A stretch of 54,249 nucleotides of DNA from a virus (IMGVR_UViG_3300049846_001989:1-54249); one strand, 5' to 3'. Counted from the stretch's first letter, positions 3 to 24,500 are shown. The notes: a model not told the origin generated them from the sequence alone. Numbers and translations: made by a program.

Positions 3-287
3 ACACAGATCGCCGAGTACTTGGAAGATTGCCCACGATTCATCCGCGGTATTTACAACAAGCGCGGTGATTCGAAGGTAGACGTTTATGACGTGACCAA
101 CCGGGTCATTCACCAGTGCGTGCCACAACGGGTACAGTACTCACTTCCTGAAGAAACTCGTACGCGACTTGACCAGTTGATCACGACCAATGTCCAGAAA
201 CGCACATATCAATACCAGCGCCAGACGATCGCTCCAGTATACGGCGGCGCCGGGTACAATAATTTCGATGACATCGGGAGATACTGA
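3..287 (+). CDS. C-terminal part of an unknown phage protein (cut by window edge)
   Basis: The reading frame is open to the left edge, so the real start is probably outside the window; an internal TTG at 21 is the first possible start. The visible 94 or so residues are hydrophilic, with many Arg, Gln and Tyr, and end in an Asp-Asp-Ile-Gly-Arg-Tyr tail. I do not recognise a family. Its TGA overlaps the ATG of the next gene (TGATG), so the two are probably translationally coupled. Since the next gene is E2-like, this protein could belong to the same pathway, but that is inference from position only. Confidence 0.6.
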   Translation, partial: TQIAEYLEDCPRFIRGIYNKRGDSKVDVYDVTNRVIHQCVPQRVQYSLPEETRTRLDQLITTNVQKRTYQYQRQTIAPVYGGAGYNNFDDIGRY

Positions 288-1711
288 TGACTACGACTTA
301 TGCCCTTCCCAATGATATAACTACCAAGATTGCCAGTCTGAAACGCGACATTTCACACTATGTCGAAGCTATTGCCAACGAGGAAAAAAGTAAAACACAA
401 TATATAGAAAGCCGTGACAAGGTGGTCCGACACTTCAGTGCATGGAAAGCTTTCTTCAAAGACAACCCACTTCCATCCGAACTACAAGAATATGCCTGGA
501 AAGATTCACGTTTTGAGTCAGCGATTCGTGAGTATTCCCAAGCTATACAAGGAAAAGAAGACGAGATCAAAGGTCTTCAAAGTCAGATCAAGAAATACGA
601 AGCTGCAATAGCCAAGTTCGAAGACGACCTGGCCAAGACCCCAATCAAATCCTACACCAAAGAACAGCTTAAAGCGGCTATGCCCGAGTTTGTCGCTGAT
701 GTAGGAATGGTTGACGGCAAGATCAAAATCACTACCAAGCCGATTCTGGCAACAATCAACCGCGTTAATCCACGCTTCCAGGTTTTCGAGAACAAGATCC
801 CGATCAAACCGATGAATGTTTACATTCATGGAAGCGCAGGTCTGGTTAAATTCCACGCAATCGGCGAAAACGGCTACGACAGCGGGTTCCTGACCAATTC
901 CCCACACCCCCACATCATGGGTGATAATAAGGCATGTCTCGGCGATTTCGCCGACCCGTTAATACAAGCCTGGAGAACTAATGACCTGGTCATGTATTTA
1001 GAAATTATCCATCTGTTCCTGAGCCAGGTTAACGCCGACGGTGACCGGGCAGGCGAGAGCTGGCCGCGCATGTTTTTTGATCGTGAGCAACTGGCTGATG
1101 AAGAAAACACTTTCGTTATCGACTACCGCACGAATACAGCGAAGGTCTGTGTCGAAGAAGTGGAAACCCCGGCCTCCTTCCAGATGGAACTTCAAGGCGT
1201 CGTCTGGAACTGCGCCGGTCCACGAAACATACCGACAGATAACGACCTTATCTCGGCGCCCTCTGGCAAGATCTTCGTACGCCGACTCGACGGCTCACTG
1301 TACGCAGCCAGTGACTACTTCACAGCCCCGATCAAGGAGCTCGTTCCGAAATTCACTGGTACGATCAAACCACGCCCGTGGAAACGCGAGTGGATGGCGT
1401 TCTGGAAGACTACGTACGACACTGTGTGGAAAATCCAGTATGAGAAGGCCTGCGCAGCGGCCACACCAGTGGCTGAAGCTGAACCGCTCGTAGCTGAAAC
1501 GCCCAAACCCAAGCGGGTACGTCGGAAGAAGCCAGTAGAAGCCCCGGCCGAGCCAGCCACAGCCGTAGTTACAGCCCCGACGGTTGTTATGGAAGCAGAC
1601 CACGTAGCCGAAGCCCCTAGACAACGTCCGCGCCCGGCAGTAGATCCCACTATGGCTGAACTGGACCGTATTATGGCCGAAGCCCCTGTAGGAGCAGAGA
1701 TAGATGGCTAA
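287..1711 (+). CDS. E2-like (ubiquitin-conjugating-fold) protein with coiled-coil N-terminus
   Basis: The protein has 474 aa. Residues about 10-120 are charged and heptad-like (coiled coil). The middle contains a strand-rich region leading to His-Pro-His at 207-209 and a Cys at 217 followed by Leu-Gly-Asp. In eukaryotic E2 enzymes the HPN motif precedes the catalytic Cys by exactly this spacing (H at 1, Cys at 11), so I read Cys217 as the candidate thioester cysteine. A basic and Pro/Ala/Glu-rich tail (about 400-474) looks disordered. Prokaryotic E2-like proteins are known to occur beside E1/ThiF, JAB peptidase and ubiquitin-like genes; here only a ubiquitin-like gene (6773-6982) is visible, and any E1 or JAB would have to lie left of the window. 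Conjugating activity is inference. Confidence 0.6.
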   Translation: MTTTYALPNDITTKIASLKRDISHYVEAIANEEKSKTQYIESRDKVVRHFSAWKAFFKDNPLPSELQEYAWKDSRFESAIREYSQAIQGKEDEIKGLQSQIKKYEAAIAKFEDDLAKTPIKSYTKEQLKAAMPEFVADVGMVDGKIKITTKPILATINRVNPRFQVFENKIPIKPMNVYIHGSAGLVKFHAIGENGYDSGFLTNSPHPHIMGDNKACLGDFADPLIQAWRTNDLVMYLEIIHLFLSQVNADGDRAGESWPRMFFDREQLADEENTFVIDYRTNTAKVCVEEVETPASFQMELQGVVWNCAGPRNIPTDNDLISAPSGKIFVRRLDGSLYAASDYFTAPIKELVPKFTGTIKPRPWKREWMAFWKTTYDTVWKIQYEKACAAATPVAEAEPLVAETPKPKRVRRKKPVEAPAEPATAVVTAPTVVMEADHVAEAPRQRPRPAVDPTMAELDRIMAEAPVGAEIDG

Positions 1712-2354: not shown

Positions 2355-2584
2355 CCGTAATCCAGCTCATAGAAGCCTTGGTAACCCTGCCACCCGATAC
2401 CCCCGTCGCTATGGTCATGCACGACGATCCTGCCATGGAAATGTACGCCGTAGGCGAGGTCAAGCTTGGCGAAGAATTTGGCTTCGAAAGTGATAATCAC
2501 TGGATGACTGATGAATCGGCCGTAGTACTGATTTCTGAGGACATAGTACTGGTAGACCCCGAGGAGTTCGAGGAGGTCAAGTGA
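2348..2584 (+). CDS. Small acidic phage protein, unknown
   Basis: This 78-aa protein is strongly acidic, especially its Glu/Asp/Val C-terminus. The N-terminus, with an L-I-E-A-L-x-x-L-P-x-D pattern, resembles a class of small phage proteins of unknown role. It overlaps the previous gene by 7 bases, and its TGA overlaps the GTG start of the first member of the small paralogue family. Confidence 0.65.
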   Translation: MLTVIQLIEALVTLPPDTPVAMVMHDDPAMEMYAVGEVKLGEEFGFESDNHWMTDESAVVLISEDIVLVDPEEFEEVK

Positions 2585-2781
2585 TTACGTATGAAGATAT
2601 GCGTAGCGTATTAACTGATGAAGAATGGACAGCTTTACATAAAGCGTCCTCTAGAACTTACCTTCGAAACTTTACAGCCAAAAGTTATAAACAATGGCTG
2701 TATAAGTTCCATAACTGGGCCAGTACCCCACAAGGATATGATTACAGGTCCAGTGTCTATTCCCGTTTTGCGGTGCTTTAA
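2581..2781 (+). CDS. Small paralogue family, copy 1
   Basis: This 66-aa protein starts at a GTG preceded by GAGGAGG and overlapping the upstream TGA. It shows the family pattern: an N-terminal T-Y-x-D-M-x-x-V-L-T-x-E-E-W-x-A-L helix, a variable basic middle, and a C-terminal N-W-x-x-x-P-Q-G-x-x-Y block ending near an Arg/Phe pair. The family has eight members in this window (starts at 2581, 2783, 2992, 3201, 3418, inside 8950, 9359 and 9598). I know no named family; no catalytic residue or zinc site is visible. Small size and aromatic content suggest a binding role. Confidence 0.75.
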   Translation: MITYEDMRSVLTDEEWTALHKASSRTYLRNFTAKSYKQWLYKFHNWASTPQGYDYRSSVYSRFAVL

Positions 2782-2782
2782 T

Positions 2783-2995
2783 ATGCTCACATTCGACGAC
2801 ATGCGCGATGTACTGACTGACAAAGATTTTGCAAAACTTGTGTTTTTAACGCGCAATTCCCCAGCAGCCAGAAAAACCATGGCTCCAAACTATGCCGACC
2901 TTCTTCAAGCTGTTTGGATAGCACTGCCTTACGAGCAACGTACAAACTCGGCCTTTTGGGGCAAGGTTTACGACCGGTTAAAGATACTCCAATGA
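2783..2995 (+). CDS. Small paralogue family, copy 2
   Basis: This 70-aa member starts one base after the previous stop. The N-terminal F-D-D-M-R-D-V-L-T block is well kept, but the C-terminal P-Q-G turn is replaced by a longer segment rich in Glu, Arg and Asn before F-W-x-x-V-Y-D-R-L. This shows that the Trp and Arg-Leu end are more conserved than the turn. Its TGA overlaps the next ATG (ATGA). Function unknown. Confidence 0.72.
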   Translation: MLTFDDMRDVLTDKDFAKLVFLTRNSPAARKTMAPNYADLLQAVWIALPYEQRTNSAFWGKVYDRLKILQ

Positions 2996-3201
2996 GCACG
3001 TTTAACGACATGCGCGATGTTTTGACTGCCAAGAAGTGGGCGGCTCTGAACCGCTTAGCAAAAAACAGCATAATTTCCAGAACGCGTGTCTCTGAAAACT
3101 ATTGGCGTTATATCCTAGGCATGTGCACTTGGGAAGTCACTCCAGAAGGGTGGCATTATTGGAACAGAGTCCACGACCGTCTACGTAGAGAACTTGAATA
3201 A
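2992..3201 (+). CDS. Small paralogue family, copy 3
   Basis: This 69-aa member has an N-terminal F-N-D-M-R-D-V-L-T block almost identical to that of copy 2, then a basic middle, T-W-E-V-T-P-E-G-W-H-Y-W and V-H-D-R-L near the end. It overlaps both neighbours by 1-4 bases, so copies 1 to 4 form one coupled translational unit. Function unknown. Confidence 0.75.
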   Translation: MSTFNDMRDVLTAKKWAALNRLAKNSIISRTRVSENYWRYILGMCTWEVTPEGWHYWNRVHDRLRRELE

Positions 3202-3431
3202 TGATTACATTCAACGACATGCACGACGTTTTGACCGATGAAGAGTGGGAGGCCCTGAACCTCATCGCTTCTACCAAGCCCGCATTAAAAAGAGAAGAAA
3301 GCAACTCCTACGCAGAATGGTTGTTTGAAAACTTTACCTGGAGCCGCGCACCACAAGGCATAGAGTTTTGGCGAGCTATACATGGACGACTGGAAGTGCT
3401 GGATGACGGGCCAAACAATGCTGCGTTTTGA
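3201..3431 (+). CDS. Small paralogue family, copy 4
   Basis: This 76-aa member starts at an ATG sharing one base with the previous TAA. It has I-T-F-N-D-M-H-D-V-L-T-D-E-E-W, then F-T-W-S-R-A-P-Q-G-I-E-F-W and H-G-R-L, followed by a short extra tail. It is the copy closest to the family consensus. It overlaps copy 5 by 14 bases. Confidence 0.75.
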   Translation: MITFNDMHDVLTDEEWEALNLIASTKPALKREESNSYAEWLFENFTWSRAPQGIEFWRAIHGRLEVLDDGPNNAAF

Positions 3432-3621
3432 AGACCTCAAAGACATCCTGACCGAAGAAGAATACGCGGCAGCAGAAAAAGCCCGCATACCCTCTAAAAA
3501 CCAGTCGTTTCACAACTATGCCAATTTAATGCTCCACACGTTTGCCTGGAACAAAACGCCAGGTTTTTCACCAGACCACTGGAAAAACAAACACACCAAT
3601 CTTTTTTTACTTATACGATAG
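3418..3621 (+). CDS. Small paralogue family, copy 5 (divergent)
   Basis: This 67-aa member keeps R-F-E-D-L-K-D-I-L-T-E-E-E-Y and F-A-W-N-K-T-P-G, but the turn is altered (P-G-F-S-P) and the C-terminus is hydrophobic instead of ending in Arg-Leu. I chose ATG 3418 because translation from there aligns with the family start; an in-frame ATG at 3382 would add residues inside copy 4. It may be a decaying or re-specialised copy. Confidence 0.68.
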   Translation: MLRFEDLKDILTEEEYAAAEKARIPSKNQSFHNYANLMLHTFAWNKTPGFSPDHWKNKHTNLFLLIR

Positions 3622-3631
3622 GAGAAACAAC

Positions 3632-3967
3632 ATGAAATTCAATGACTTCGTAATGAAACTTGCCAAAAATTGTGGCCTCGAAGACTATCCTGAAGATTTG
3701 GCGTTCCTCGAAAGAGCACTTGATGCAATCCGACGTTCGACTGATCAGGATTTCTACGTAAATATCGTAGACCCCAATTCGGACCGCAACCTTCGAGACC
3801 ATGAAATCATCATACGCCCTGAATGGGACAGCTATAACGACACCGTCGAAATCGTAGTTCCTTTCGATAATGAAGCCACCAAGCCGAAGAAATCCCCAAC
3901 AATTCCTGACGAAGACCTTGACGACCGCGTCTTCAATGCCAGACTGGGGGAGCATATTGCCGGTTAG
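3632..3967 (+). CDS. Unknown acidic protein
   Basis: This 111-aa protein starts at ATG 3632, seven bases after a strong AGGAG, in preference to upstream in-frame codons that lie inside copy 5. It has a helical N-terminus and then a strand-rich part. The last 35 residues are rich in Asp, Glu, Pro and Lys. No family recognised. It ends about 45 bases before the primase-helicase, the largest gap in this part of the array. Confidence 0.75.
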   Translation: MKFNDFVMKLAKNCGLEDYPEDLAFLERALDAIRRSTDQDFYVNIVDPNSDRNLRDHEIIIRPEWDSYNDTVEIVVPFDNEATKPKKSPTIPDEDLDDRVFNARLGEHIAG

Positions 3968-4011
3968 CCCGTAACGGGATATCCTGACATACCCACACAG
4001 TCTGGTGCTTT

Positions 4012-6354
4012 ATGAAGATCAATTTCCTGAGTGCGCAGTTCCCAATAACAAAGACTTACAGCCAGACCAGGTCAGGTAACATAAACAAGACGCCCTATCC
4101 CTTTGTTTATGAAGTAAATTCTTTCGAATACCAGGTCCCTACGCTCGAGGCCCTATTCCCCCTGATACAACAGCACGCGGGGCAAGGGCACTGTCTCCTG
4201 AAAGGCGAGCTGGCCCGCCCCCTCGTCTCCGAGTCCCGGGCTGGCAGCACTGACCCCAAGCAGAAGACCGAGTGGGTGTGCCTGGACCTGGACGGGATTG
4301 GCGGGTACTCGACCGTGGACCAGTTCCTCCAGGACGTGGGTTGTGGTGAGACGGACTACATCCTTCAGTGGTCTGCCAGCCAGGGCGTGGGCGGCGCCCC
4401 CGAACTGCGCTGCCACATCTTCATGATGCTCGACGCGCCCAGGACCCCCGAGTTCCTGAAGCGCTGGCTGATGACCCTGAATCTGACCTGCTCACGGCTC
4501 AAGGAGCAGCTCCGACTCACACGTACCAACTGCAGCTTACGCTGGGGGCTCGACATCACGACCTGCCAGAACGACAAGCTGCTATACATCGCACCACCGC
4601 TGTTCGAGAACATGGAAGACCCCCTGGCCGGACAGGCCCGAATCTCATTCCACAAAGGCAAGCGCCGGCGCCTAGCTATTGGCACCCAGGTCCTCGAACG
4701 TGAGGCCCTGAGGAACCTGTCAGACCAACGGATCAACGAGCTGCGTCTCGGCAGCAGCATGCCCAAGCGCAAGACCACGAAGTACAAGGTACAGGGCTCT
4801 GTGGAATACATGCAGAACCCGGACACGGCCACCGTGACGGACATCAAGATCGAACGTGGCTTTGTCTACCTGAACCTCAACGGCGGGGACTCCTGGGCGT
4901 ATTACCACCCGGAGAACAACCCGTCGTTTATATACAACTTCAAGGGCGAGCCAGTCTATAAAACTGACGAGCTCTTGCCCGAATACTGGGCCGAGATTGC
5001 CCGACGTGCCCAGGACTACCAGCCAGACACCTCTGGAACGATCTACCTGGCCTTCAGGGAGTTTCGGACCGGTAACTACTATAACGGCACCTTCGATGGC
5101 GAGACAAGCCGCCTGAACCTGGCCATGGCCAAGAACGAGACACAACTCAAGCACTTCCTCAAGCAGCACGGGCAGCCGGTAGGCGACTATGTACCTGACT
5201 GGGACCTGGTGTTCGACCCCCACAGCGAGATCACTCTCGATGTGATGAACCGCACCGTGAACACGTACGTACCAAGCGTGTACATGGAGGACCGCTCGCC
5301 CCCCAAGGTGACGACTATCCCTCCCGTGTGCAACAAGATCATCAGGCACGTACTGGGCGACGACGAGGAGTGTGTACTGCGCTTCCTCAACTGGCTGGCC
5401 TGTGTGGTGCAGTTCAAGGACCGGACAGGCACCGCCTGGGTCCTGCACGGCACGCAGGGGACGGGCAAAGGCCTGCTGTTCCACCATATCATTGCCCCCA
5501 TCCTCGGAGAGCACAACACCTCGGCCAAGCGGATGGAGGAGCTGGAGAGTGAGTTCACAGGCTTCGTAGAGAACAAGTTCGTCACGGCTATTGACGAGAT
5601 CGAGGTGGGCAGCTCGCTGTACCACGCCAAGATCACTGCCAAGCTCAAGAACCTGATCGTGGAACCGAGTATCTCGATCCGCAAGATGTACACTCCGGCA
5701 TATATGTCCCGGAACTACAACAACATGCTCTTCATGAGTAACCAGTCCGAGCCGCTACAGGTGTCGCCGGACGACCGCCGCTTCAACGTGGCTCCATACC
5801 AGTTCAACAAGCTCCAGATCACGACCACCGAGGTGGACTCGATCGAGAAAGAACTCAAGCAGATGTATGCGTACCTGATGCACTACCCGGCGAACCGCGA
5901 CATGGCTCGCACGCCGCTGATCAACCAGGCACGTGAGACATTGATAGACATCAGCCGGTCAGCCGTGGACGTCGTAAGTGACGCCCTGCTGGCAGGCAAT
6001 TTCGGATTTTTCTGGGATCAGCTCCCGTCACAAAAACCGCCGGAGAGTGGGGCGATAACCAACCCGAACCACTTCAAGTATATGCGGTATCGAGAGCTGC
6101 TCCTGGGCATACTGGAACGTACAGAACCCTGTGCCCTGTCACGGGATGACCTGTACACCATGTATGACTGGTGCGATGGCAAGGTACCATCAAGCCCCAA
6201 CAAGTTCACGGCCCTGCTCAAGCATCACCGTATTCACTTGACCCCTGTCTGGGTGGGCAAGCGGACAACTCGAGGGATTGAAGTACAGTGGGACTTCTCA
6301 GATAAAGAGTGGGTAGCGGCCTTGAAAGAAGAAGTCAAAAACAACACAGTCTGA
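4012..6354 (+). CDS. Primase-polymerase / SF3 helicase
   Basis: The protein has 780 aa and two enzymatic halves. The N-terminal half fits an archaeo-eukaryotic primase-polymerase: D92-x-D94, His135 in a C-H-I-F strand and Asp182 in L-D-I match the three catalytic positions of that fold. The C-terminal half is a superfamily 3 helicase of the NrS-1 polymerase-like/DUF5906 type: Walker A G-T-Q-G-T-G-K-G near 481-488, Walker B A-I-D-E near 527-530, and a sensor Asn in F-M-S-N-Q near 577. It probably makes primers and unwinds DNA at the phage fork, with the family A polymerase (9822-11690) extending. It is GC-richer than the small genes to its left. Confidence 0.9.
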   Translation: MKINFLSAQFPITKTYSQTRSGNINKTPYPFVYEVNSFEYQVPTLEALFPLIQQHAGQGHCLLKGELARPLVSESRAGSTDPKQKTEWVCLDLDGIGGYSTVDQFLQDVGCGETDYILQWSASQGVGGAPELRCHIFMMLDAPRTPEFLKRWLMTLNLTCSRLKEQLRLTRTNCSLRWGLDITTCQNDKLLYIAPPLFENMEDPLAGQARISFHKGKRRRLAIGTQVLEREALRNLSDQRINELRLGSSMPKRKTTKYKVQGSVEYMQNPDTATVTDIKIERGFVYLNLNGGDSWAYYHPENNPSFIYNFKGEPVYKTDELLPEYWAEIARRAQDYQPDTSGTIYLAFREFRTGNYYNGTFDGETSRLNLAMAKNETQLKHFLKQHGQPVGDYVPDWDLVFDPHSEITLDVMNRTVNTYVPSVYMEDRSPPKVTTIPPVCNKIIRHVLGDDEECVLRFLNWLACVVQFKDRTGTAWVLHGTQGTGKGLLFHHIIAPILGEHNTSAKRMEELESEFTGFVENKFVTAIDEIEVGSSLYHAKITAKLKNLIVEPSISIRKMYTPAYMSRNYNNMLFMSNQSEPLQVSPDDRRFNVAPYQFNKLQITTTEVDSIEKELKQMYAYLMHYPANRDMARTPLINQARETLIDISRSAVDVVSDALLAGNFGFFWDQLPSQKPPESGAITNPNHFKYMRYRELLLGILERTEPCALSRDDLYTMYDWCDGKVPSSPNKFTALLKHHRIHLTPVWVGKRTTRGIEVQWDFSDKEWVAALKEEVKNNTV

Positions 6355-6364
6355 GGAGTAGTAC

Positions 6365-6541
6365 ATGAAGCGCTTGTTCCAGATAACGGATACCCAGAGC
6401 GGAAAACAGCACGGCACGACATTTTACGGTGACAAGATGGTAGCGAAGCGTGAGCGTAAGCGCCTGAACGACGAGTGTGGGCACGAAACCCGCTTCGTTG
6501 TGTCGCCAGGGCCAGACCATCATAAGAAACAAGATGTCTGA
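6365..6541 (+). CDS. Small basic protein, unknown
   Basis: This 58-aa protein starts at an ATG preceded by GAGGAG and lies 11 bases after the helicase stop. It is basic, with an A-K-R-E-R-K-R-L helix and a His-rich end (P-G-P-D-H-H). It overlaps the next small gene by 8 bases. The charge suggests nucleic-acid or protein binding; no family recognised. Confidence 0.65.
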   Translation: MKRLFQITDTQSGKQHGTTFYGDKMVAKRERKRLNDECGHETRFVVSPGPDHHKKQDV

Positions 6542-6734
6542 CGCCCGCACAGCAGCCATCGCGCGCCGCGAGCGCATTTACAAGCGCGAACGCCCGTGTA
6601 TCTGCGGTGAAGACAAGTTCTACAGTTTATCGAACCGGTGCACAACCTGTTCGAGAAAAAACGGCAGAGATTCGCCCACTACGAATTGCTGTCGTCTAAC
6701 CAATCCTGAAACGCCTGGACAACGTGAAGGGTAA
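6534..6734 (+). CDS. Small zinc-finger-type protein
   Basis: This 66-aa protein starts at ATG 6534. It has an Arg/Lys-rich N-terminus, then R-P-C-I-C-G and, after a 12-residue aromatic linker, C-T-T-C-S-R-K. The four cysteines fit a zinc ribbon or treble clef of the kind found at the front of small HNH-associated phage proteins. No HNH catalytic histidines are seen, so it is probably a DNA- or RNA-binding module rather than a nuclease. A similar layout occurs in the gene at 17032-17190. Confidence 0.6.
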   Translation: MSDARTAAIARRERIYKRERPCICGEDKFYSLSNRCTTCSRKNGRDSPTTNCCRLTNPETPGQREG

Positions 6735-6772
6735 TTCGAACGTCCACATCAACTCTCATGAGGAGAAATACC

Positions 6773-6982
6773 ATGATCAATGTACGTGTAGCTCGTGTAC
6801 CTGGCACTGTCCAGGAAGTAGCCCTGAACGATGGCGCCTCCGTAGGTGACGCACTCGGCCAACTGGGCATGCGCGTTGAGTCAGGCGAAGCCCTGAAAGT
6901 CAACGGCGCAGACGCCACTACCTCTACTACCCTGAGCGACGGTGACCGGGTTATCCTGGTTAAAGGCGCCAAGGGGAACTGA
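6773..6982 (+). CDS. Ubiquitin-like / MoaD-ThiS-like beta-grasp protein
   Basis: This 69-aa protein starts at ATG 6773, seven bases after AGGAG; an ATG at 6758 sits inside the ribosome site region and is rejected. The pattern is that of a beta-grasp fold: a first strand (I-N-V-R-V-A), a tight turn, a second strand (V-Q-E-V-A-L), a helix beginning A-S-V-G-D-A-L, a strand with V-N-G, then D-G-D-R-V-I-L-V and a C-terminal G-A-K-G-N. MoaD, ThiS and ubiquitin-like proteins share this order and are activated at a C-terminal Gly. Here one Asn follows the Gly, so trimming might be needed. With the E2-like gene at 287 it suggests a conjugation pathway (inference). Confidence 0.68.
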   Translation: MINVRVARVPGTVQEVALNDGASVGDALGQLGMRVESGEALKVNGADATTSTTLSDGDRVILVKGAKGN

Positions 6983-6983
6983 G

Positions 6984-7418
6984 ATGAACTACGCAGGAGT
7001 AATAATCTGCGTAGCTGGTTCGGAAACTTCCGTCTTGGTGCGCTCGCCAGGCACCTTGGCGGAAGCCCTCCCACCTAACCATCCGGCGTGGAAACACTTC
7101 CCACTGGAAACGCTCGTTGCCACTCGCCACTTTATTGAAGGGCAGCGCTTTTCCTGCATCAACTCAACAGAATCCAAACCAGCTCAAAAGGAGCAATTCG
7201 ATATGTCAGCACCAATCGTTCAAGACATCAAGCAATACCGCGGCCGCGACATCACGTCGCTGTCTCCCCAGGCAATCATGGACGCCATCAAGGCAGACAA
7301 GAGAGCCATCCGGGACCTGCAAGACACAGGCGTTGAATCTACCTACATCACTGCAGAAGTTGCCCGCATCCAGACCGGCATCGACGCACTGGTAGCGGAA
7401 CTCAACACCCGAGTGTAA
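6984..7418 (+). CDS. Unknown protein with a likely internal start
   Basis: The full frame gives 144 aa from ATG 6984, one base after the ubiquitin-like gene, with AGGGG upstream. In the same frame, ATG 7203 is preceded by AAAAGGAG at good spacing and would give a 72-aa protein beginning M-S-A-P-I-V-Q-D. The C-terminal part is helical with regular charged residues; the N-terminal part looks like a separate small domain. Either both products are made or two genes have fused by loss of a stop. No family recognised. Confidence 0.6.
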   Translation: MNYAGVIICVAGSETSVLVRSPGTLAEALPPNHPAWKHFPLETLVATRHFIEGQRFSCINSTESKPAQKEQFDMSAPIVQDIKQYRGRDITSLSPQAIMDAIKADKRAIRDLQDTGVESTYITAEVARIQTGIDALVAELNTRV

Positions 7419-7542
7419 GACCTTCCCCCGAAGGGAAACGAGGAAGCTGCGTTAAGGCTAGCCCCGGGCACTCCCACCCGGGCACCAATTCAAAGCGAAT
7501 CCCAGCGAATCTTTACCCATAACTAACCTATGCTGAGGTTCT

Positions 7543-8910
7543 ATGCGCACGCCACCGCCACTTTACGACCACCAGGTCAGGGACGTACAGTTCTGTCTTG
7601 ATAACCCACGAGTCTTCGATTCATCAGACCCCGGCTGCGGGAAAACCCGCGTGCAGATCGAGACATTCAGGATCAGGCGGCAACGTGGTGGCAAGTGCCT
7701 GCTAGTTATTTGCCCGAAATCCCTCCTGCGCTCAGCGTGGGAGAACGATTTCCACAAATTCGCACCAGAGATCACAGTCTCTGTTGCTCCGGCGGCCAAG
7801 CGTGAAGAGGCTTTCCAACGCGAGGCTGACGCTTACATTACCAATACCGACGCAGTCGTGTGGCTGGCCAAACAGCCGCCGCGCTTCTTCGCCAAGTTTG
7901 ACACGCTGGTTATCGACGAGATCACCGCGTTCAAGCATCACACCAGTCAGCGCTCGAAGGCTCTTGCCAAGATCCGCAAGCACTTCATCAACCGCGCTGG
8001 CCTGACAGGAACGCCAAACTCCAACACCATCGCAGACCTGTGGCACCCGATTTTCATCATCGACGACGGTAAGCGACTGGGGACAAGTTTTTACCAGTTC
8101 CGTGCTTCAGTGTGTTCGCCAAAACAAGTCGGCCCTGACCCTAACATGGTCAAGTGGGAAGATCGTGACGGCGCAGAGCTGGCTGTCGGCGGGCTGCTGA
8201 AAGACATCACGATCCGTAATATCTTCGAACAGTGTCACGATATTCCGGAGAATCTCCAGACTGTTATGCCATACCAGATGTCGCCCAAGCAGCGCAAGGC
8301 ATACGACCAAATGGAGAAGGCGGCCATCACACTCGTGAACAACAACGAGGTGGTGTCTGCCATCAATGCTGCAGTTGTGGCCAACAAACTCCTGCAGATT
8401 GCCTCAGGCGCTGTGTATGGTGACGAGGAAGAATACTCAGTCGTGGATCTCGACCGCTACGAGCTTGTAGCACAGCTCGTACAGGAGCGTACCAACCCGT
8501 GTGTCGTGTTCTTCAACTGGCGGCACCAGCGCGATGGACTAATAGAGGAGTTCGACCGGCGCGGGATTATTTACACGCTGGTTGATGGAACGACGACAGA
8601 CAAGAATCGTGAGGAGGCCGTACGCCTGTTCCAGGCCGGGTTCTACCACGTCTTCCTGGCACACCCTGCTTCTGCCGCACACGGCCTGACACTGACCAAG
8701 GCGACGACGACAATCTGGACAAGCCCGGTGTATAACCTTGAGCACTTTGTACAGGGTAACCGGCGTACGTACCGTGCAGGCCAGACCCAGCGGACCGAGA
8801 CGATCACACTCCTGGCTGAAGGCACCATCGAGACGAAGGTATATGAAAAAATGACCGCGAAAAATGTTCGTCAGCTCAACATGTTGTCAATTCTCAAGGA
8901 GCTCTCATGA
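7543..8910 (+). CDS. SNF2-type superfamily 2 helicase/translocase
   Basis: The 455-aa protein has the SNF2-like motifs in order: motif I D-P-G-C-G-K-T (29-35), motif II D-E-I-T near 124-127, motif III L-T-G-T-P near 154, motif IV V-V-F-F-N-W near 323, and motif VI Q-G-x-x-R-x-x-R-x-G-Q near 403-413. It lacks accessory domains and is short for the family, as is usual for phage versions. It probably translocates on duplex DNA during replication, recombination or fork restart. It follows a 124-base intergenic stretch, so it may begin a new translational unit. Confidence 0.88.
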   Translation: MRTPPPLYDHQVRDVQFCLDNPRVFDSSDPGCGKTRVQIETFRIRRQRGGKCLLVICPKSLLRSAWENDFHKFAPEITVSVAPAAKREEAFQREADAYITNTDAVVWLAKQPPRFFAKFDTLVIDEITAFKHHTSQRSKALAKIRKHFINRAGLTGTPNSNTIADLWHPIFIIDDGKRLGTSFYQFRASVCSPKQVGPDPNMVKWEDRDGAELAVGGLLKDITIRNIFEQCHDIPENLQTVMPYQMSPKQRKAYDQMEKAAITLVNNNEVVSAINAAVVANKLLQIASGAVYGDEEEYSVVDLDRYELVAQLVQERTNPCVVFFNWRHQRDGLIEEFDRRGIIYTLVDGTTTDKNREEAVRLFQAGFYHVFLAHPASAAHGLTLTKATTTIWTSPVYNLEHFVQGNRRTYRAGQTQRTETITLLAEGTIETKVYEKMTAKNVRQLNMLSILKELS

Positions 8911-8949
8911 CGAAACCCTGGTGGCAGGGCTGCCGCGCTAGTTAGAGAT

Positions 8950-9381
8950 GTGACTACTACCCGCCCAACCGTTGACTTCGGCGTACTGACTAATGAAGCG
9001 CGTGCTGCGTGGGCGGCTAATACTTTTCAAACGGCGCAAAACCGCGGGTTTGTGGAGCGGTTTTTAAGAGACAACATAAACGGTATACCAGACCAGGAGA
9101 ACGAGAACGTGGATTCAGAAAAACCAATAACTTACATCACCATGTTGCAGCTCATGACTCCTGAGGAACTGGAAGCGTTCGACATCGCATGGGAATCTGC
9201 CGGTGGGTATAGAAGGGGCTCAAGCTTACCCCCACTCCCAGAACTCAAAGCCAGAACACCACGCAGTTTTATAGATCGAACCCTGTATTGGAGAAAAACC
9301 CCACAAGGACACGATTATTGGGACGCTCTCAGCAATAAATTAAACAAAAGGTGGCAAGATGGCCTCCGTCACATACAATAA
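8950..9381 (+). CDS. Capsid N-arm mimic fused to small paralogue family (copy 6)
   Basis: This 143-aa protein starts at a GTG. Residues about 9-65 align without gaps to residues 5-61 of the major capsid protein encoded at 44993-46102: by hand I count about 18 identities in 57 positions, including F-x-x-L-T-x-E, A-W, F-V-x-x-F-L, N and S-E-K. The remaining part is a member of the small paralogue family: I-T-Y-I-T-M-x-x-L-M-T-P-E-E-L near residue 60 and T-P-Q-G-H-D-Y-W near 118-125. The fusion is direct in one frame, so it is not an assembly of two ORFs. Possible roles include binding to capsid partners, occupying the site of a host sensor of capsid protein, or regulating assembly. None is shown by the sequence alone. 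Confidence 0.75.
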   Translation: MTTTRPTVDFGVLTNEARAAWAANTFQTAQNRGFVERFLRDNINGIPDQENENVDSEKPITYITMLQLMTPEELEAFDIAWESAGGYRRGSSLPPLPELKARTPRSFIDRTLYWRKTPQGHDYWDALSNKLNKRWQDGLRHIQ

Positions 9382-9604
9382 TATCCACAAATTCTTGCGT
9401 AAAAGTGCCATGCAAGAGCTGGAGCTTGCGCTTATAGACTCCCGCACCGTGTTCACAGAATACACCGTCGCAGATCTCGTACGCCCGTGCGCCTCCGACT
9501 GGATCCACGATCTGTTCAACTGGGAGAGTTCACCCCAAGGGCCCTATTATTGGTTCGATACGTATCAATCCTTGCTCGAAAGAGAGGAGAAAGAATCGTG
9601 GTAA
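9359..9604 (+). CDS. Small paralogue family, copy 7
   Basis: This 81-aa member overlaps the previous gene by 23 bases. Its N-terminal block is diverged (V-T-Y-N-N-I-H-K-F-L), but the C-terminal block F-N-W-E-S-S-P-Q-G-P-Y-Y-W is intact and followed by a Glu/Arg tail. It shares the segment C-A-S-x-W with copy 8, so copies 7 and 8 are probably the most recent duplication of this cluster. Confidence 0.73.
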   Translation: MASVTYNNIHKFLRKSAMQELELALIDSRTVFTEYTVADLVRPCASDWIHDLFNWESSPQGPYYWFDTYQSLLEREEKESW

Positions 9605-9825
9605 CCTACGCCGATATGCACACATACCTGACTCATGAAGAAATGGAAGCGCTGGAAACGGCGCTGAGCAGTCCTGATACAAACGTTCTTGATAAACCTC
9701 TGCCAGAATTTAAAAGAAACTGTGCATCATCGTGGTTATTCTGGTTTTTTAACTGGGGGTCTTCTCCACAAGGACACAACTACTGGAGTAGCGTACACAA
9801 GCGCTTGGAACGGGAAAAGGTATGA
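9598..9825 (+). CDS. Small paralogue family, copy 8
   Basis: This 75-aa member starts at GTG 9598 after a GAGGAG site. It has V-T-Y-A-D-M-H-T-Y-L-T-H-E-E-M-E-A-L, then F-N-W-G-S-S-P-Q-G-H-N-Y-W-S-S-V-H and R-L-E-R. It overlaps the DNA polymerase start by 4 bases (ATGA), so it is translated together with the replication genes. Confidence 0.75.
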   Translation: MVTYADMHTYLTHEEMEALETALSSPDTNVLDKPLPEFKRNCASSWLFWFFNWGSSPQGHNYWSSVHKRLEREKV

Positions 9826-11690
9826 CAATCGAAATCCGTAACCGCGAATACCAGATCGTCACTCTCGATTTCGAGACGTACTACGACACTGCCAAGGTGT
9901 ATTCACTCAAGAGCCCGTTCCTGAACCTGTCAGAGTACGTCCGGCACGAGCTGTTCAAGGCGCATGGTGTGGGGATCAAGATCGAGCAGGGCAAGACGCG
10001 CTGGTATACTGGCGCGAAGGCTGAAAAGGAAATCCAGAAAATCGACTGGGACAACACAGCACTTCTGTGCCACAACACCTATTTCGACGGCTTCATCCTG
10101 CACGAACACTACGGCGTGCACCCGGGCTTCTACATGGATACCATGTGCATGGCCCTGGCCGCCCACGGAGCTAACTCCAAGGTAGGCCTGGACTTCCTGG
10201 CCCGGCTCCACGGACTGAGCGGCAAGACCAAGGCGCACGCGCTGGTCAACACACTCGGCAAGCGCGACCTGTCGAAGGAAGAACTCAAGGCGCTGGGCGA
10301 GTACTGCGCCGACGATTGTGACGACACGTACGCGCTGTTCCATAAACTGTACACTTACGTGCCAGACGACGAGCTGCGCCTGATCGACCTGACGCTGCGC
10401 ATGTTCTGCGATCCCGTTATCTACCTTGACGAAGCCAGATGCCGGGCAGAGTATGACCGCGAAGTGCGGGAGAAACAGGAGGCGATCGAGTTCGTCAAGG
10501 AACTGTGTACTGTCACCGAGCTGCAGAGCAATGAGAAATTCGCTGATCTGCTCCGGGCGCAAGGCGTGGAACCGCCGATGAAGATCAGCCTGACTACACA
10601 GAAACCGACGTACGCCTTCGCCAAGACAGATTTCGATTTCGTGGACCTCATGGAAAACGGCACTCCAGTGGTCCAAGCGCTGTGTAATGCCCGGGTCCGA
10701 AATAAAACAACAACGAACGAGACCCGGGCATTGCGCTTCCTCGAAGCAGGCAAATGTGGCGCGCCTATTCCTGTGTACCTGAAATACTGCGGCGCCCACA
10801 CGTTCAGGTGGAGTGGCGGCAACAAGCTCAACCTCCAGAACCTGATGCGCGGTGGCGAGTTGCGCCGTTCACTACTAGCCCCGCCCGGTTATCGCCTGGT
10901 TGTAGCAGACAGTGCCCAGATTGAAGCCCGTACACTCGCGTGGCTGTCCGGCGAGCACGCCATTATCGAAGCGTTCGCTAACAAGCGCGACGTTTACAAG
11001 ATGATGGCCTCGGCGATTTACAACGTCCCGGAAGACCAGGTTGACAAGGAGCAGCGCTTCGTAGGTAAGGTCTGCGTTCTCGGCCTCGGGTACGGGATGG
11101 GGGGCAGCAAGCTGAACGACACACTGGCCAAAGGTGCCATGGGGCCGAAAGTCGTACTACCTACCGAAGAAACCACACGTATCGTCGCTGCGTACCGGGC
11201 TGCCAATAAGGCGATCGTCGGTATGTGGCGCCGCGCTGAAGAAATTCTGATTGACATGATTCTCGGCAATACCGGCTCGTACGGCCCGCTTACATGGGGC
11301 AAGGGCTTCATCAAGATGCCCAACGGGCTCTTCATGCAGTACGCCAACCTGAGCGGAGAAATCCGTTACGACCGTAGCGGTCGTGCGCGGTTGAGTGACG
11401 CGTGGTACGAAGGTAAACGCGGTGTCAAGACCTACATTTACGGTGGGTCTGCCACAGAAAACTGGGTCCAGAGCCTAGCACGGTGTATCGTAGCTGGTCA
11501 GATGTTGACGATCAGTGAGCGCTACCGTGTAGTCACCATGTCACACGACGAAATCGTATGCCTGGCCAAAGAGGACGAAGCCGATGAGTGCTTGCGCTTC
11601 ATGATCGAGACCATGTCAACTGCGCCACCTTGGGCCGAAGGCCTACCACTCGCGGCAGAAGGAGGCCACGATGTCTGTTACTCGAAGTGA
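9822..11690 (+). CDS. Family A DNA polymerase with 3'-5' exonuclease
   Basis: The 622-aa protein has both catalytic modules. The proofreading exonuclease shows D16-F-E18, H-N-T-Y-F-D near 84-89 and Y-C-A-D-D-C-D-D near 159-166. The polymerase part has motif A (A-D-S-A-Q-I-E-A-R near 361-369), motif B (K-V-C-V-L-G-L-G-Y-G-M near 414-424) and motif C (S-H-D-E near 572-575). It is compact, like T7-type phage enzymes, and has no 5' nuclease. It is the replicative polymerase of this phage, presumably working with the primase-helicase at 4012-6354. Confidence 0.94.
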   Translation: MTIEIRNREYQIVTLDFETYYDTAKVYSLKSPFLNLSEYVRHELFKAHGVGIKIEQGKTRWYTGAKAEKEIQKIDWDNTALLCHNTYFDGFILHEHYGVHPGFYMDTMCMALAAHGANSKVGLDFLARLHGLSGKTKAHALVNTLGKRDLSKEELKALGEYCADDCDDTYALFHKLYTYVPDDELRLIDLTLRMFCDPVIYLDEARCRAEYDREVREKQEAIEFVKELCTVTELQSNEKFADLLRAQGVEPPMKISLTTQKPTYAFAKTDFDFVDLMENGTPVVQALCNARVRNKTTTNETRALRFLEAGKCGAPIPVYLKYCGAHTFRWSGGNKLNLQNLMRGGELRRSLLAPPGYRLVVADSAQIEARTLAWLSGEHAIIEAFANKRDVYKMMASAIYNVPEDQVDKEQRFVGKVCVLGLGYGMGGSKLNDTLAKGAMGPKVVLPTEETTRIVAAYRAANKAIVGMWRRAEEILIDMILGNTGSYGPLTWGKGFIKMPNGLFMQYANLSGEIRYDRSGRARLSDAWYEGKRGVKTYIYGGSATENWVQSLARCIVAGQMLTISERYRVVTMSHDEIVCLAKEDEADECLRFMIETMSTAPPWAEGLPLAAEGGHDVCYSK

Positions 11691-18573: not shown

Positions 18574-18582
18574 ATTATAGCA
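18574..18582 (-). promoter_or_regulatory. Possible extended -10 promoter for the 18267-18482 gene
   Basis: On the minus strand the sequence reads TGCTATAAT, a perfect extended -10 element, straddling the stop codon of the 2257-aa protein gene. No good -35 hexamer lies at 16-18 bp, as is allowed for extended -10 promoters. Transcription would start near 18567 and give an 85-base leader to the small zinc protein. Chance occurrence cannot be excluded. Confidence 0.4.
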
Positions 18583-21500
18583 CCTTGGCGGGCAGGAACG
18601 TGTGGGTAGCGAACTGTTCCCAGTTGCCCTGGCCGGCCCGCATCAGGTTCTCCAGGGTGGGGCCGAACTCCACATTCATAAGCCCGTCGCCCGGCTGCGG
18701 CCCGAAAAACGCCCCCTCCCGGCCAGTGATGCCGGCCCGGTTCAGACCGTGCTGCATATAGTCCGCCCAACCCCAGTTCGCAGTACTGGGCCCCCCGAAC
18801 AGTGACCACTTGACCATATCGGTAGCGATCATCAGTGGTACGCCAGCCATCAGGTACGCCATCGGCCTCCAGTTGCCCTTGCCCAGCTGGTTTACACCCC
18901 GCTGCAGCAGGACTTTGTCGAAGGCGTAGGCGAAGCGCTTCATGTGAGCCAGCAGGGCGAAGCGGGGGTCAGCCATCCACGTGGGCTGATGAGCCGCATT
19001 CGGGTGCAATACGGCGCTTTCCACGAAGCGGTACACGGCCCTGGACATGCTGTCCGAGTTCACAATCGGGTCGCCGTCCTCGTCAAACTGCATATTCTTC
19101 ACGTCCTGCGCGTTCAGGCCTAGCTCCTTGAGCGCCGGCGGGTTGGCCAGGTTCTCTTTTATGTACTTCAGGCCGGCCCGGGTGGCGGCTACGCGCATGC
19201 TGTTGTTGAAGGCCTGCATGCCGTTGACTTTGAAGAACACGCTATTGATCTTGCGGTTCACCTGACCCATGCTCATGGCCATGCCGGCCATGGTCTGGGC
19301 AGCCACGTCGTCCTGTATCGCGCCGACCATTTCAGCCAGCTCGCGGTATTTGTCGGGCGACTTGCTGAATACCCGGCGGATGTCTTTCAGGGCCTGCAGG
19401 TATGCCCTGCCAGCGTCGGACAGCTTGCCAGACCGGGCAGCTATGGCCAGCGGGTCGATGAACTGCGAGAACACGGCCAGCGGGAGCATGGCGGTATTCT
19501 GGAGTGTCATGGCAGCACCTGTAGCGGTGCGCATCAGCGGGGTCAGCGCGTGCTGCTGGAGTGTGCCCTCGACTGCCTGCACTGCCTTGCCTGCCTGCTC
19601 GATCTCGCGCTCTGTAGCGCCCTGCTCGCGTGCCTTGTCCATCAGGTCCTTGATCACAGCCCCGTCGTCGTTGAACATGCGGGCGTATTCCGTGCGGTGC
19701 ACGCCGGCTCGGATGTAGTTCTCCAGTATGTAGCTGATGTCGTCGTGCTGGAACTTGACGAACTTGTGCGCGTTCTTCGGGGTGATGAACTTCATCTGCC
19801 GCTCTTCGTGTGAGGCAGCGAACGGTGTGTACCCGAGGTGGTGCTCGTTCTCGGCCAGGTCGATCTGGCCAGACCCGTGCAGGATGTTCTGGACGATGTT
19901 GTCCGCCGCGAGCAGGTCCATGTTGCCTTCGTCGATCAGCAGCTGGCGGAACTCGTCCGGGCGGTCAGCGATGGCTGAAGCGTCCCAGCTACGCGGAAAG
20001 TAGTCCTTGACCTGACGGACTTCGATTCCGGAATCGCGCATATACCGGTAGAAGTTATCCAGCAGCTCGCGCACGGCTTTTTCAGCCGGCGAGGTGGCTG
20101 GCTGCATGGCCTGCAGGTTCTTCATCGCTTCGTGCAGCTCTTCCTTGGAGAACTCCTCCAGCGTCTTGCCCATCGCCACGTTCCAGCGGCCCATCATCCG
20201 GCCGCGTTGTTCGACGAAATCGGTACCCGCACCCTGGTCGTTCACTTCCTTGTAGAGCATATCGGCCAGCTCGGTCAGGGCCGGGACGTTAGCCCGGCGC
20301 ATGTTCTCCAGGCCAGTGTTGACTGCTTTGTAATACAGGTCTGCCACCGGGCCGGCGACGCTTTCGAACTTGTCGCGCATGCTCTGGCCCATGATCGTGC
20401 GCATGGCTGTCGGGGCAGTCCTCGGGTTGCTCAGCTTGCCGTTGTACAGGGCCATGAAGAACCGGTCGGCCTGCTGCGATTCAGACAGTACACCGACCAG
20501 GTCGCGCAGGAACTGCAGGACCTTGCGGAACACGGTGTCTGTCTCCGGGTTCACCAGCTTGCGGATCTCGGGGTCGGCTACCCACATCTGGAACAGGTAC
20601 GCCACGCGCTCCTCGGGATCAGCCATGACCTGCTCGATTTTCTGCACGTTGGCCCGGGCGATTTCAGCCTCGGACATACCCGCGCGCTGTTCGGCGCTTA
20701 GCATACCGCCCGCGTCGAATAGGCGGCGTTTGACAGCGCTGAGTACGGCTGGACGCGACGCTGCGGCTTCGATCCGGGCCTTGAGCTGCCGCACTTCACG
20801 GGTACTGCCCAAGGCGTGCCACACAGCGTGCAGGGCCTCGTGGTGCGCTACGCTCATCGGGTTCACCGCGTCGATTGCCACCTCGATGATGCGCTTCTTG
20901 TTCGCTTCGGAGCGGAACTCGCCCGAACCGCCCAGTTGTGAAGCCAGGCGGTTGAATTTGACATCAATCTCCTTGCCGGCGATCCGGTAAATCTCCTGGA
21001 ACATCTTCTCACGCAGCGCAGCGCGGTCTTCACTGATCGTCGTGAATTCCCCGTCTATGCCGTCAGGTGACTGCTCATTTTTCTTTACGGTCGAGGTATT
21101 GTTCCCACCCTTTTTTTCTGTGGATACGCCGGCCTCTGCTTTCGCCGCATTTCTAGCGGCCTGTTCAGCCAGGAGTGCGCGCATACGGGCGCGACGCCCT
21201 GCCGGGGAGTTCGGGCTAGGTTCCCGCTTTTGTTCTGTACGCACTTGTCTAGCGACGGGTTCGGCAGTTCTTACCGCCGTGTCGGGCGCAGGCTTGGCGT
21301 ATTTATTAACAAGCGCGTCGGACTTTTTCTTCAGTTCGTCGATGCGGGCGGTAGAATTCTCTACGCCCTCCAAGGACTTGATCTCAGCCTGATACCCCTT
21401 CCACAGGTTCCGGTCTCTCTGTGTCGCGCGCTCGGTAAAATACGCCACCGCGTTTTCAACCCCCTGCCTACCTTCGGCAGACTTCATCCGCGCACGTGCA

Positions 21501-24500
21501 CGCTCTGCTGGAGTGGTCGTACCTTTGCCGGGGGGGTTTTTAGGTTCGACGTAACGGGTCTGCGGCGTCGTTTCACGGTCTGAGCGCGTCAACAGCTCTA
21601 TTTCTGCCTCAGCAGCCTGCCTACGCGCCGTAATCGAGTTCCCCCTAAATTTTTTCCGCTCGGCTGGAGTACTAAATTTTTCCGAAACCTTATCAAGCGC
21701 CAACAGCTCGGCACGCAACTCTGCCAAGCGTTTTGAAACCCCGGTCTCCTTTGTGTCCTGCATATCAACGCGATTTTCTACTAGCGGATCAGGGTTAGCC
21801 CCAATGTCCGCAGCAACTTTGGCGCGATATGAACCGCCCTCGTTAAACTTGGCGTCGAACTCCTGCTGCTTGTTCGCCAGGTTCTTTTCCAATTCAAGGA
21901 GCAGGGGCTCGTCTACCATGGGGGCGCTTTTAACAGCGGCGATGCGCTCTTGCACGGCCTCGATGTTGGCAGCGGCGTCAGACTCGCGGGCTTGGTCCAG
22001 CTCGTTGAACATCTCCGTCTCTGTAGTACCAGTGATGACGTCACTACGGTCTTCCGCATATGGGAACGCCTCAGCCAGCTCGCGGCGGACAATGGCGCGC
22101 ATGGCCAGAACATTGGCGCGCGGATCGTAGTTTGTAGTACCACGAGTAGCGTCCCGTTCAGCAGCGCGATTGGCTTGTGAGAGCGCTAAGAGCGAAGCCT
22201 CTAGCCGGAATTGACCAGCGCGTTCTACTGGGCGCTCTCCAGGCGCAGTTGTGTAAGGCCGCATACCGTACCCAGCGAGATCTGCGGCCAACTTGTCAAC
22301 ATACTCCTCGCGCGCCTTGTCGTTTCGCAGTTTTGTAAAACTCTTCTCCGACACTTTCGCGAGCTGCTTGGCTAATACCATGCGGACTGCCTGCTGGCGA
22401 ACAGACGCTGGGGCGTTGCGCAACTTCTCTTGTGTTGGGTCTTGCATGGCGATGTCGATCGCTTCGGCAGTAGATTTGGCGCCACCGTTTTTCGCCCGCT
22501 TAAACGCGGCCTCGAAAGGCCCGGCCACGTCTGTGCCTATATTCTGGCGATATTGTCTGGCCAACTCGGTGTAAGCAGTGTTTTCGGGGCCGAAAGCATG
22601 CTCTACGTCAGCGGCGTAATTCTTCACGCGAGCCTGGACGTCACGACGCAGAAAGTTTGCTTCCTTCTCTACGAATTTGGCTTTTTCAAGCGTCGTTCCG
22701 CGTTTCGGACCGACATCCTCCACAGCTGGCTTCGGCGCGCGCTTCTTCGCATCAGACTTCAGCGCCAGGTCGCCCCAGCGCAGTACTTTTCCGTTCGAAG
22801 CGGTATGTAGTATTGTGTCGGGTGGGACATCTGCATTCATCGCACCGTCGCGAATGACGTCGATCTTGACCGGCTCACCAGCCTCGTTCTTGCCAGTCAG
22901 CTGCAGGCCAGTCAGGTCTTCGCGAGCAATGAGTCCGGTCAGCACCCGCATGAATTTCTCGGCCGGCTTATACTCCCGGTCGGTGGTGATATTGCCGACA
23001 CGCGTGCGGCTCATCATCAACTGGGTAGACAAGTTTACGGGGCGCGACTTACCTTCGCCATCAGTGAAGAAGGCTTTCAATACGGCGCCTTTTTCGTCCG
23101 CGCCGCTACCCGCCATGAAATCGCCCAGCTCGCGGTTTGACATCGTCGCTGTCTGTGAATCCCCACGACCCGCCCCGGTCTGCACCGGCTCTATGTTCTG
23201 AACATCGACGTTCAGCTTGTCCATGTAGCTGTTATCGCCGGTGCGCGCCTTGGCGATAGCGTCATCCAGCGTGTTGATCAGGTTCGTCGTGTGCTCGATT
23301 TCCGGCTTGGCCGCTTCCTGATCCTTGGCTCTCAGCAGGTTGTTCAGGTGGCGTTCTTCACCGCGACGCGCGCGGACGAGCTCCATAACCGGCGTGGTGT
23401 CGTCGGGCATGTACCGCTGGAAGTAGTCCTTACCAGACACGCGCATGCGGTTATCTTCCAGCTGCTGCGGGGTGGTGAGTGGTTGGTCGGCCAGTGTAAT
23501 AGCCCTGTGCGGGGCATTACGCGGCCCAGCAGCGTAGGCGCCGGGTTCTACGGCGTTGATTCCGTCGAGCGGAGAAACCGGTGTTTCTGACCCACCGCCT
23601 TCTTCGTCTACACTGAGACCGGCTTTTCTAAGCGCCGCCTGCATGGCGCTTTCGATCTCAGTGCCGGCCTGCAGGTTCATCTTGCTGACCGCACCTCCCG
23701 CCGACGTCACCCAGCTGTTTAACGCATCCCCGGCTGCGGTAACTCCACGCGCAGCTACGTCTTTTGCCGTGCCCAACCCTTGTTTTGCCATCTGTTTGGA
23801 CAGTTCGCCGATGCGGTTTGCACCGAGTTCGAGAACTGCGTTTCGTATGTCGCTCACTGCGTTTTCGTCGAGGGCGCTTTCACCTGTCAGAATTTGAAGC
23901 ATATACTGTTGCGTAGTTACGTCCCCAGCTTGTTCGGCCAGCTGGCGGGCGATGTCTGCCTGCATCAGCGTTTCGCTCAGTTTTTTCTTCTCGGTGAGTC
24001 CTAGCTTGGCATTCCATTCAGGTTTGTCTGCCAGATAGAAGTTGAGCAGCTCTGCCTTGGCCCTCTCGCGTTCGGCACCAAACTGTGGCACCAACGTCTG
24101 TTTACCCTCAGTAGCCTGGCGGATACCCTCCAGTGTTTCTACCAGAACATCCGGGTTATATAAAGCGTGTAGAGCCGGAAACTTATCCGCCACAAACAGC
24201 GCGTCGTTCTTGGCAGCCTGCGCCAAGTTTTTGATGATCCCCGCGGTCGCGGCCAGGCCGGGGTTGGCTTGCACCGTTTTGTTGATCGCTTCCATCGTCT
24301 TGGAAGCCAGACCCTGGGTTGCCTCGGGCGTAGTCTTGAGCGCATCCATACCTTGGGCGGCCAGTGCTTTGGCCTTGTTCACGCCGGGTTGGGCCATGTT
24401 CACGCCGGAAGCGATGGCCTGGCGGGCAGCGTCGGGCACTGTGGCCAGGGCTGCGTTGCCGCCGGCGCCGGCAGCAGCTACGCCGCCACCTTGCAGGGCC

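What the first reader, a model, noticed from the sequence alone, without database searches (positions are those of the whole stretch)
2581..9825. Eight-member family of small paralogues in two clusters
Genes starting at 2581, 2783, 2992, 3201, 3418, 9359 and 9598, and the second half of the 8950 gene, share the pattern T-Y-x-D-M-x-x-L-T-x-E-E-x-x-A-L near the start and W-x-x-x-P-Q-G-x-x-Y-W near the end. They are tightly coupled and diverged from one another. Repeated duplication with divergence is typical of genes in conflict with host factors or of subunits that must interact with several partners. No named family came to mind.
Basis: partly seen in the sequence, partly recalled or inferred. 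Interest (0 to 1): 0.78.

Follow-up and report, generated by a model that had tools for sequence, protein, structure and literature searches.

The report
Multiplied small phage helical-domain proteins
This phage carries eight diverged copies of a tiny, well-folding protein that turns up unnamed in very many unrelated phages but almost never in bacterial genomes, is repeatedly multiplied in rows or fused to enzymes, and in related phages shows a conserved half and a fast-changing half, as expected of a module that binds different partners.

Summary
Eight small proteins (five genes at 2581-3621, two at 9359-9825, and the C-terminal half of the 8950 gene) are paralogues: profiles built from any seven retrieve the eighth (E 1e-7 to 1e-25; next best 0.03). 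They form two translationally coupled runs beside primase and DNA polymerase. They are not orphans: the motif F-x-W-x-x-[ST]-P-[EQ]-G-x-x-[FY]-W marks a phage domain without Pfam or NCBIfam name; 106 of 132 collected relatives match phrog_16354 (unknown function). It occurs in tailed phages up to 400-kb jumbo phages and in two Microviridae, but in only 2 of 955 sampled bacterial genomes. AlphaFold gives a confident five-helix fold (pLDDT 92) without match among solved structures. Expansion recurs: 12 tandem genes in a 266-kb phage, five copies in one polypeptide elsewhere; the domain is also fused to DUF3310, DUF6378, dGTP-diphosphohydrolase, ART and HTH modules. In Vibrio phages one half is conserved (dN/dS 0.09) while non-motif positions of the other vary (0.53; 1.07 among tandem copies). 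Best reading, not proven: a protein-binding module whose arrays diversify partner specificity.

The parts
2581..2781 (+). copy p1, 66 aa (GTG start, GAGGAGG ribosome-binding site just upstream)
2783..2995 (+). copy p2, 70 aa, most diverged motif (TPQG replaced)
   Evidence: not hit by phrog_16354
2992..3201 (+). copy p3, 69 aa, basic (pI 9.7)
3201..3431 (+). copy p4, 76 aa, acidic (pI 4.4); structure predicted at pLDDT 92
3418..3621 (+). copy p5, 67 aa, motif partly lost
8950..9381 (+). p6 gene, 143 aa: low-confidence N-terminal extension plus one domain copy at 9124-9378
   Evidence: model with domain at pLDDT mostly above 90
9359..9604 (+). copy p7, 81 aa, acidic
9598..9825 (+). copy p8, 75 aa (GTG start, GAGAGGAG ribosome-binding site); stop overlaps the DNA polymerase start
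4012..6354 (+). context: primase/helicase-like protein next to run 1
   Evidence: phrog_24712 E 5e-213; DUF5906 and VapE-like
7543..8910 (+). context: SNF2-type helicase upstream of run 2
9822..11690 (+). context: family A DNA polymerase downstream of run 2; about 40% identical to Kochitakasuvirus (KPP25-like) polymerases

Best explanation
Each gene encodes one copy of a compact five-helix phage domain. The conserved F-x-W...[ST]-P-[EQ]-G-x-x-[FY]-W stretch forms the loop and start of the last helix and probably makes the hydrophobic core. The domain is a protein-protein binding module expressed with the early replication genes: one half is kept constant, and residues around the motif (loop before W, outer side of the last helix) vary and set partner specificity. 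Duplication into coupled arrays, or fusion in tandem or to an enzyme, gives a phage several binders at once. The most likely targets are host proteins (host take-over or defence factors); docking onto the phage's own early enzymes is the alternative. Shown: family, fold prediction, phage restriction, recurrent arrays and fusions, and uneven variation in relatives. Inferred: that it binds proteins, that the variable patch is the interface, and that targets are of the host.
For: Family real and eight-membered. Confident fold (pLDDT 92) for p4 and the same helix order for p6. Phage restriction: 2 of 955 bacterial genomes in three classes against all six phage records searched with the same profile. 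Recurrent expansion: 12 tandem genes in G007, 4-gene array plus one in Vibrio phage HNL01, five copies in one ORF in L168. Fusions to DUF3310 (4), DUF6378 (2), dGTP_diPhyd_N, ART-PolyVal, HTH and weakly to Amidoligase_2 and RimK, as expected of a recruitment module. Uneven evolution: Vibrio orthologues N-half dN/dS 0.09 versus mid non-motif 0.53; the difference in pN was reached in 0 of 1000 permutations while pS does not differ (p 0.59); HNL01 tandem copies 0.13 versus 1.07. Window copies range from charge -8 to +4, against one shared nucleic-acid or metabolite ligand. Presence in 5.8-kb Microviridae, which encode no DNA polymerase (general knowledge), argues for a host-directed role.
Against: No partner, phenotype or solved structure. 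Whole-gene dN/dS is below 1, and 0.5-1.07 in the variable part also fits relaxed constraint. The half-conserved pattern is not visible in the older arrays of the window and of G007. Neighbours are mostly replication and recombination genes, which also fits a role with phage enzymes. No close relative of this phage was found, so selection in the window itself was not measured. The Microviridae records are marked UNVERIFIED in GenBank.
Confidence: 0.45

Rival explanations
1. The copies are subunits of a phage replication or recombination complex, each diverged paralogue filling a different place in a hetero-oligomer (acidic and basic copies pairing).
For: Both runs adjoin the primase/helicase and SNF2 helicase/DNA polymerase and p8 overlaps the polymerase start; across loci the annotated neighbours are mainly helicases, polymerases, Erf annealing proteins, DnaB and primases; pI runs from 4.4 to 9.7.
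Against: KPP25, Rhizobium phage RHph_TM3_14A and L012, with related polymerase or primase, lack the family, so it is not needed by this replisome type; copy number varies from 1 to 12; Microviridae have it; copies also lie in jumbo phages and in accessory regions between NinB and terminase genes in Vibrio phages.
Confidence: 0.2
2. The copies are specific inhibitors of bacterial defence systems (an anti-defence array), each monospecific.
For: Small, phage-restricted, multi-copy, diverged, variable patch; array-like reuse in unrelated phages.
Against: No match to any protein with a solved structure, known anti-defence proteins among them; fusions to nucleotide and peptide-modification enzymes are not typical of such inhibitors; no test done.
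Confidence: 0.2
3. The domain is a substrate-recognition or carrier part of phage peptide-modification systems (amidoligase, ATP-grasp, ubiquitin-like proteins).
For: Found in a large Vp_R1 protein annotated S6 glutaminyl transferase, in a cluster with COOH-NH2 ligase, glutamine amidotransferase and gamma-glutamyl cyclotransferase, with a second small copy there; joined to an Amidoligase_2-like region in L073; the window has a ThiS/MoaD-like protein at 6758-6982.
Against: Most arrays and single copies have no such enzyme identified nearby; the Amidoligase_2 and RimK matches are below Pfam cut-offs; no E1-like or ligase gene was identified in the window.
Confidence: 0.1
4. The duplicates are neutral leftovers of gene amplification without distinct functions.
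For: p2 and p5 have lost core motif residues.
Against: All eight frames stay open and coupled although synonymous sites are saturated; 280 of 439 identical degenerate residues are kept through synonymous change; relatives show purifying selection.
Confidence: 0.05

Closest known systems
PHROG phrog_16354 (and phrog_25460, phrog_10949, phrog_20568), function unknown
   Same: phrog_16354 matches p1, p3, p4, p6 and p8 at E below 1e-3 and 106 of 132 collected relatives; phrog_25460 matches 64 and phrog_10949 46
   Different: No function, name or structure is attached; p2 and p5 are not hit; the PHROGs split what profiles show to be one family and say nothing of arrays or fusions
Tandem array of 12 copies in the 266-kb phage IMGVR_UViG_3300002092_001784 (G007, 135.7-139.4 kb)
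   Same: Head-to-tail small genes of 72-88 aa with the same domain
   Different: Separate N-terminal signature (MTxEQR...FL); jumbo phage; independent expansion
Vibrio phage HNL01 KUA24_81-84 and KUA24_87
   Same: Tandem small copies with the motif
   Different: Recent copies with constant N-half and variable mid part, unlike the old, evenly diverged window copies
Lineage-specific expansion of about 35 zinc ribbons in Bacillus phage G (PMC7824862)
   Same: A small phage domain multiplied in one lineage
   Different: Unrelated metal-binding domain with a proposed DNA-binding role; the present domain has no such signature

Membership tests
phrog_16354 (phage protein family of unknown function) | significant match to the PHROG profile over the domain | tested here: met
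   p1 2e-4, p3 2.5e-5, p4 5e-6, p6 7e-7, p8 2e-4; p7 0.31; p2 and p5 no hit; six places in the record E 1.8e-8 to 0.017. p2, p5 and p7 belong by the window profile
phrog_16354 (phage protein family of unknown function) | F-x-W-x-x-[ST]-x-[EQ]-G-x-x-[FY]-W core | tested here: met
   p7, p8 complete; p3, p4, p6 with one or two changes; p1 lacks the last W; p2 and p5 lack the G core
any Pfam-A or NCBIfam family | score above curated cut-off | tested here: not met
   none for the eight copies nor for 132 members beyond isolated weak hits
class D beta-lactamase (only weak sequence resemblance in the PDB) | homology beyond the FxWdkTpxGxexW stretch | tested here: not met
   OXA-1 E 0.13 over 18 residues; no Foldseek match
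known anti-defence or host-take-over protein of solved structure | sequence or fold match to a solved example | tested here: not met
   no significant PDB match by profile or Foldseek (best E 7.7); function itself not testable with these tools
protein-binding module with variable interface | excess amino-acid variation at exposed non-core positions | tested here: inconclusive
   clear conserved-half/variable-half split in Vibrio orthologues and HNL01 copies, but ratios near or below 1 and surface exposure not measured

The most novel reading that the evidence does not exclude
A pervasive phage-only domain, overlooked because each copy is tiny and diverged, serves as a general-purpose protein-recognition scaffold: a constant half and a variable patch, multiplied in arrays of up to a dozen and bolted onto phage enzymes to aim them, so that phages carry small repertoires of binders against host proteins.
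Probability: 0.25. Interest if true: 0.88.

Novelty: new variant of a known kind. Interest (0 to 1): 0.62.

Why it matters
A single recognisable domain links many 'hypothetical proteins' across tailed phages, jumbo phages and Microviridae. The arrays offer natural sets of diverged binders that can be cloned and screened directly; if the variable patch sets specificity, they are a route to finding which host proteins phages engage, and the fusions tell which enzymes they aim.

Tried and rejected
My first three motif scans were one base out of frame by mistake. The N-terminal pattern T-[FY]-x-D-M-...-L-T-x-E-E found only two chance hits, so that signature is specific to this lineage. The search for related loci with the DNA polymerase and with p8 found nothing, and the primase found one 36%-identical fragment, so dN/dS among close relatives of this phage was impossible; Vibrio-phage relatives were used instead. 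Nearest annotated phages (KPP25, RHph_TM3_14A) lack the family; phage Rollin has only a marginal hit, E 0.007. A tree of the eight copies resolves nothing except that p6-p8 group together (93/88). Fold searches gave no solved-structure match. A constant-half pattern was sought in the window and G007 arrays and not found. More Vibrio orthologues were sought, but nearly all further records are near-identical. Literature searches found nothing on the family.

Full report
OBSERVATION. The window is a whole IMG/VR virus record of 54,249 bases. The eight ORFs exist at the stated places on the + strand. They are one family: an HMM built from any seven recovers the eighth among all 763 window ORFs of 40 aa or more with E 1e-7 to 1e-25, while the best non-member has 0.03. 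A profile search of the record finds exactly these eight. The independent public profile phrog_16354 hits six of the eight places. Pairwise identity is 14-44%, every pair is saturated at synonymous sites, and most identical residues are kept through synonymous change (280 of 439): these are old duplicates held by selection on protein. Genes overlap or abut, so the copies of a run are probably made together. p6, p7 and p8 group together in the tree (93/88), so each run probably grew locally.

WHAT THE PHAGE IS. The DNA polymerase is 40% identical to those of Pseudomonas phages KPP25 and phiR18 and 33% to Rhizobium phages; the primase belongs to phrog_24712. KPP25, RHph_TM3_14A and the metagenomic fragment L012 lack the family. 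It is therefore accessory in this group, set next to primase and polymerase.

THE WIDER FAMILY. The best single-domain match outside the window, L222, aligns over the whole length (E 2e-15). Of 132 members (the eight of the window included), 106 match phrog_16354, 64 phrog_25460 and 46 phrog_10949, all of unknown function, and none matches a Pfam or NCBIfam family credibly. Annotated phages with it include KPP10, S-CBS2, Vp_R1, over 200 Vibrio records, Cellulophaga phages, a crAss-like phage and two Microviridae. The Microviridae records are flagged UNVERIFIED, but two independent ones carry it; their frames read AFRWASTPEGADYW and AFVFSDTPEGQDFW. Cellular genomes: 0 of 369, 2 of 295 and 0 of 291 in three classes. 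One of the two hits (L306) sits between a YqaJ-type exonuclease and a helicase (identified by eye) and looks like a prophage; the other (L305) lies among small phage-like ORFs. The same profile finds all six phage records used as positive control.

FOLD. AlphaFold2 on an alignment of 132 natural sequences gives p4 a mean pLDDT of 92 with helices at 5-9, 13-25, 27-31, 37-44 and 54-69; the W-x-x-[ST]-P-Q-G part is the loop and N-cap of the last helix. The p6 domain shows the same helix order at high confidence, while its N-terminal extension is uncertain. Foldseek finds nothing in the PDB (best E 7.7) and only unnamed phage proteins in BFVD (best E 0.075, probability 0.99).

RECURRENT EXPANSION AND FUSION. 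Of 231 loci with the domain, 38 hold two or more copies in the short stretch fetched (these loci were selected by the motif, so the fraction is not a frequency in phages). A 266-kb phage has 12 copies at 135.7-139.4 kb; HNL01 has four in a row and a fifth nearby; L168 has five in one ORF. Longer ORFs with the domain also hold DUF3310 (4), DUF6378 (2), dGTP_diPhyd_N, ART-PolyVal, DUF5824 and HTH regions, with weaker Amidoligase_2 and RimK regions. The nearest large genes with a named PHROG are mostly helicases, polymerases, Erf proteins, DnaB, primases and exonucleases.

SELECTION IN RELATIVES. In seven distinct Vibrio-phage orthologues, whole-gene dN/dS is 0.2-0.4 for the closest informative pairs. 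It is very uneven: 0.09 in residues 1-31, 0.49 in 32-66, with no difference in synonymous change (permutation 0/1000 for pN, 0.59 for pS). Leaving out the eight motif positions, which are those conserved in the wide family, the mid part is at 0.53, and the stretch 59-67 (start of the last helix) at 1.19, from few sites. In three recent tandem copies of HNL01 the values are 0.13 and 1.07. This is the pattern of a scaffold with a changing face, though relaxed constraint is not excluded. The window's own copies are too old for the test; they differ instead in net charge from -8 to +4.

MECHANISM. Shown: a small, phage-restricted domain, confidently predicted to fold, that is duplicated and fused again and again and varies unevenly. 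Inferred: it binds proteins; the variable part chooses the partner; arrays widen the choice; partners are mostly of the host. That Microviridae use it, that related replisomes do without it, and that copy number ranges from one to twelve speak against a fixed structural part of the phage replisome. The fusions speak for a recruiting module rather than a pure inhibitor. I put 0.45 on this reading, with replication-complex subunits and dedicated anti-defence proteins at 0.2 each.

VERDICT. The finding is real and broader than its reader could see. It is a new, lineage-specific expansion of an existing but unnamed and, in the literature held here, unstudied phage domain family.

Noticed in passing
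window 50800-53433 (-): The large terminase (Terminase_6C at residues 688-839) appears by eye to be interrupted by an intein-like stretch that ends ...GEALIPTHNS.
   Followed up: no
window 6758-6982 (+): A ThiS/MoaD-type ubiquitin-like protein (Pfam ThiS 28.4 bits, cut-off 22.5) sits in the replication region, between primase and SNF2 helicase.
   Followed up: partly
window 287-1711 (+): A 474-aa protein with a coiled-coil start and a HPHI...ACLG stretch that recalls E2/RWD-type domains (memory only); no Pfam domain above cut-off and no phage match by tblastn.
   Followed up: partly
window 18575-25348 (-): A 2257-aa ORF in the virion gene block, perhaps an ejected internal virion protein.
   Followed up: no
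L286 (Vibrio phage Vp_R1) 1-7142: Peptide-modification cluster (COOH-NH2 ligase, glutamine amidotransferase, ATP-grasp-type protein carrying this domain, gamma-glutamyl cyclotransferase) with a second, stand-alone copy of the domain.
   Followed up: partly
L289 (G007), 140085-142998 of the record: Next to the 12-copy array lies a second run of unrelated genes that all begin MIKLK(S/E/G)LL, suggesting a shared N-terminal signal.
   Followed up: no
L012 2828-3655: Two tandem 123-aa paralogues (MNTF[IV]PTNG[AT]GALF...) near the primase of a related phage fragment: another local duplication.
   Followed up: no
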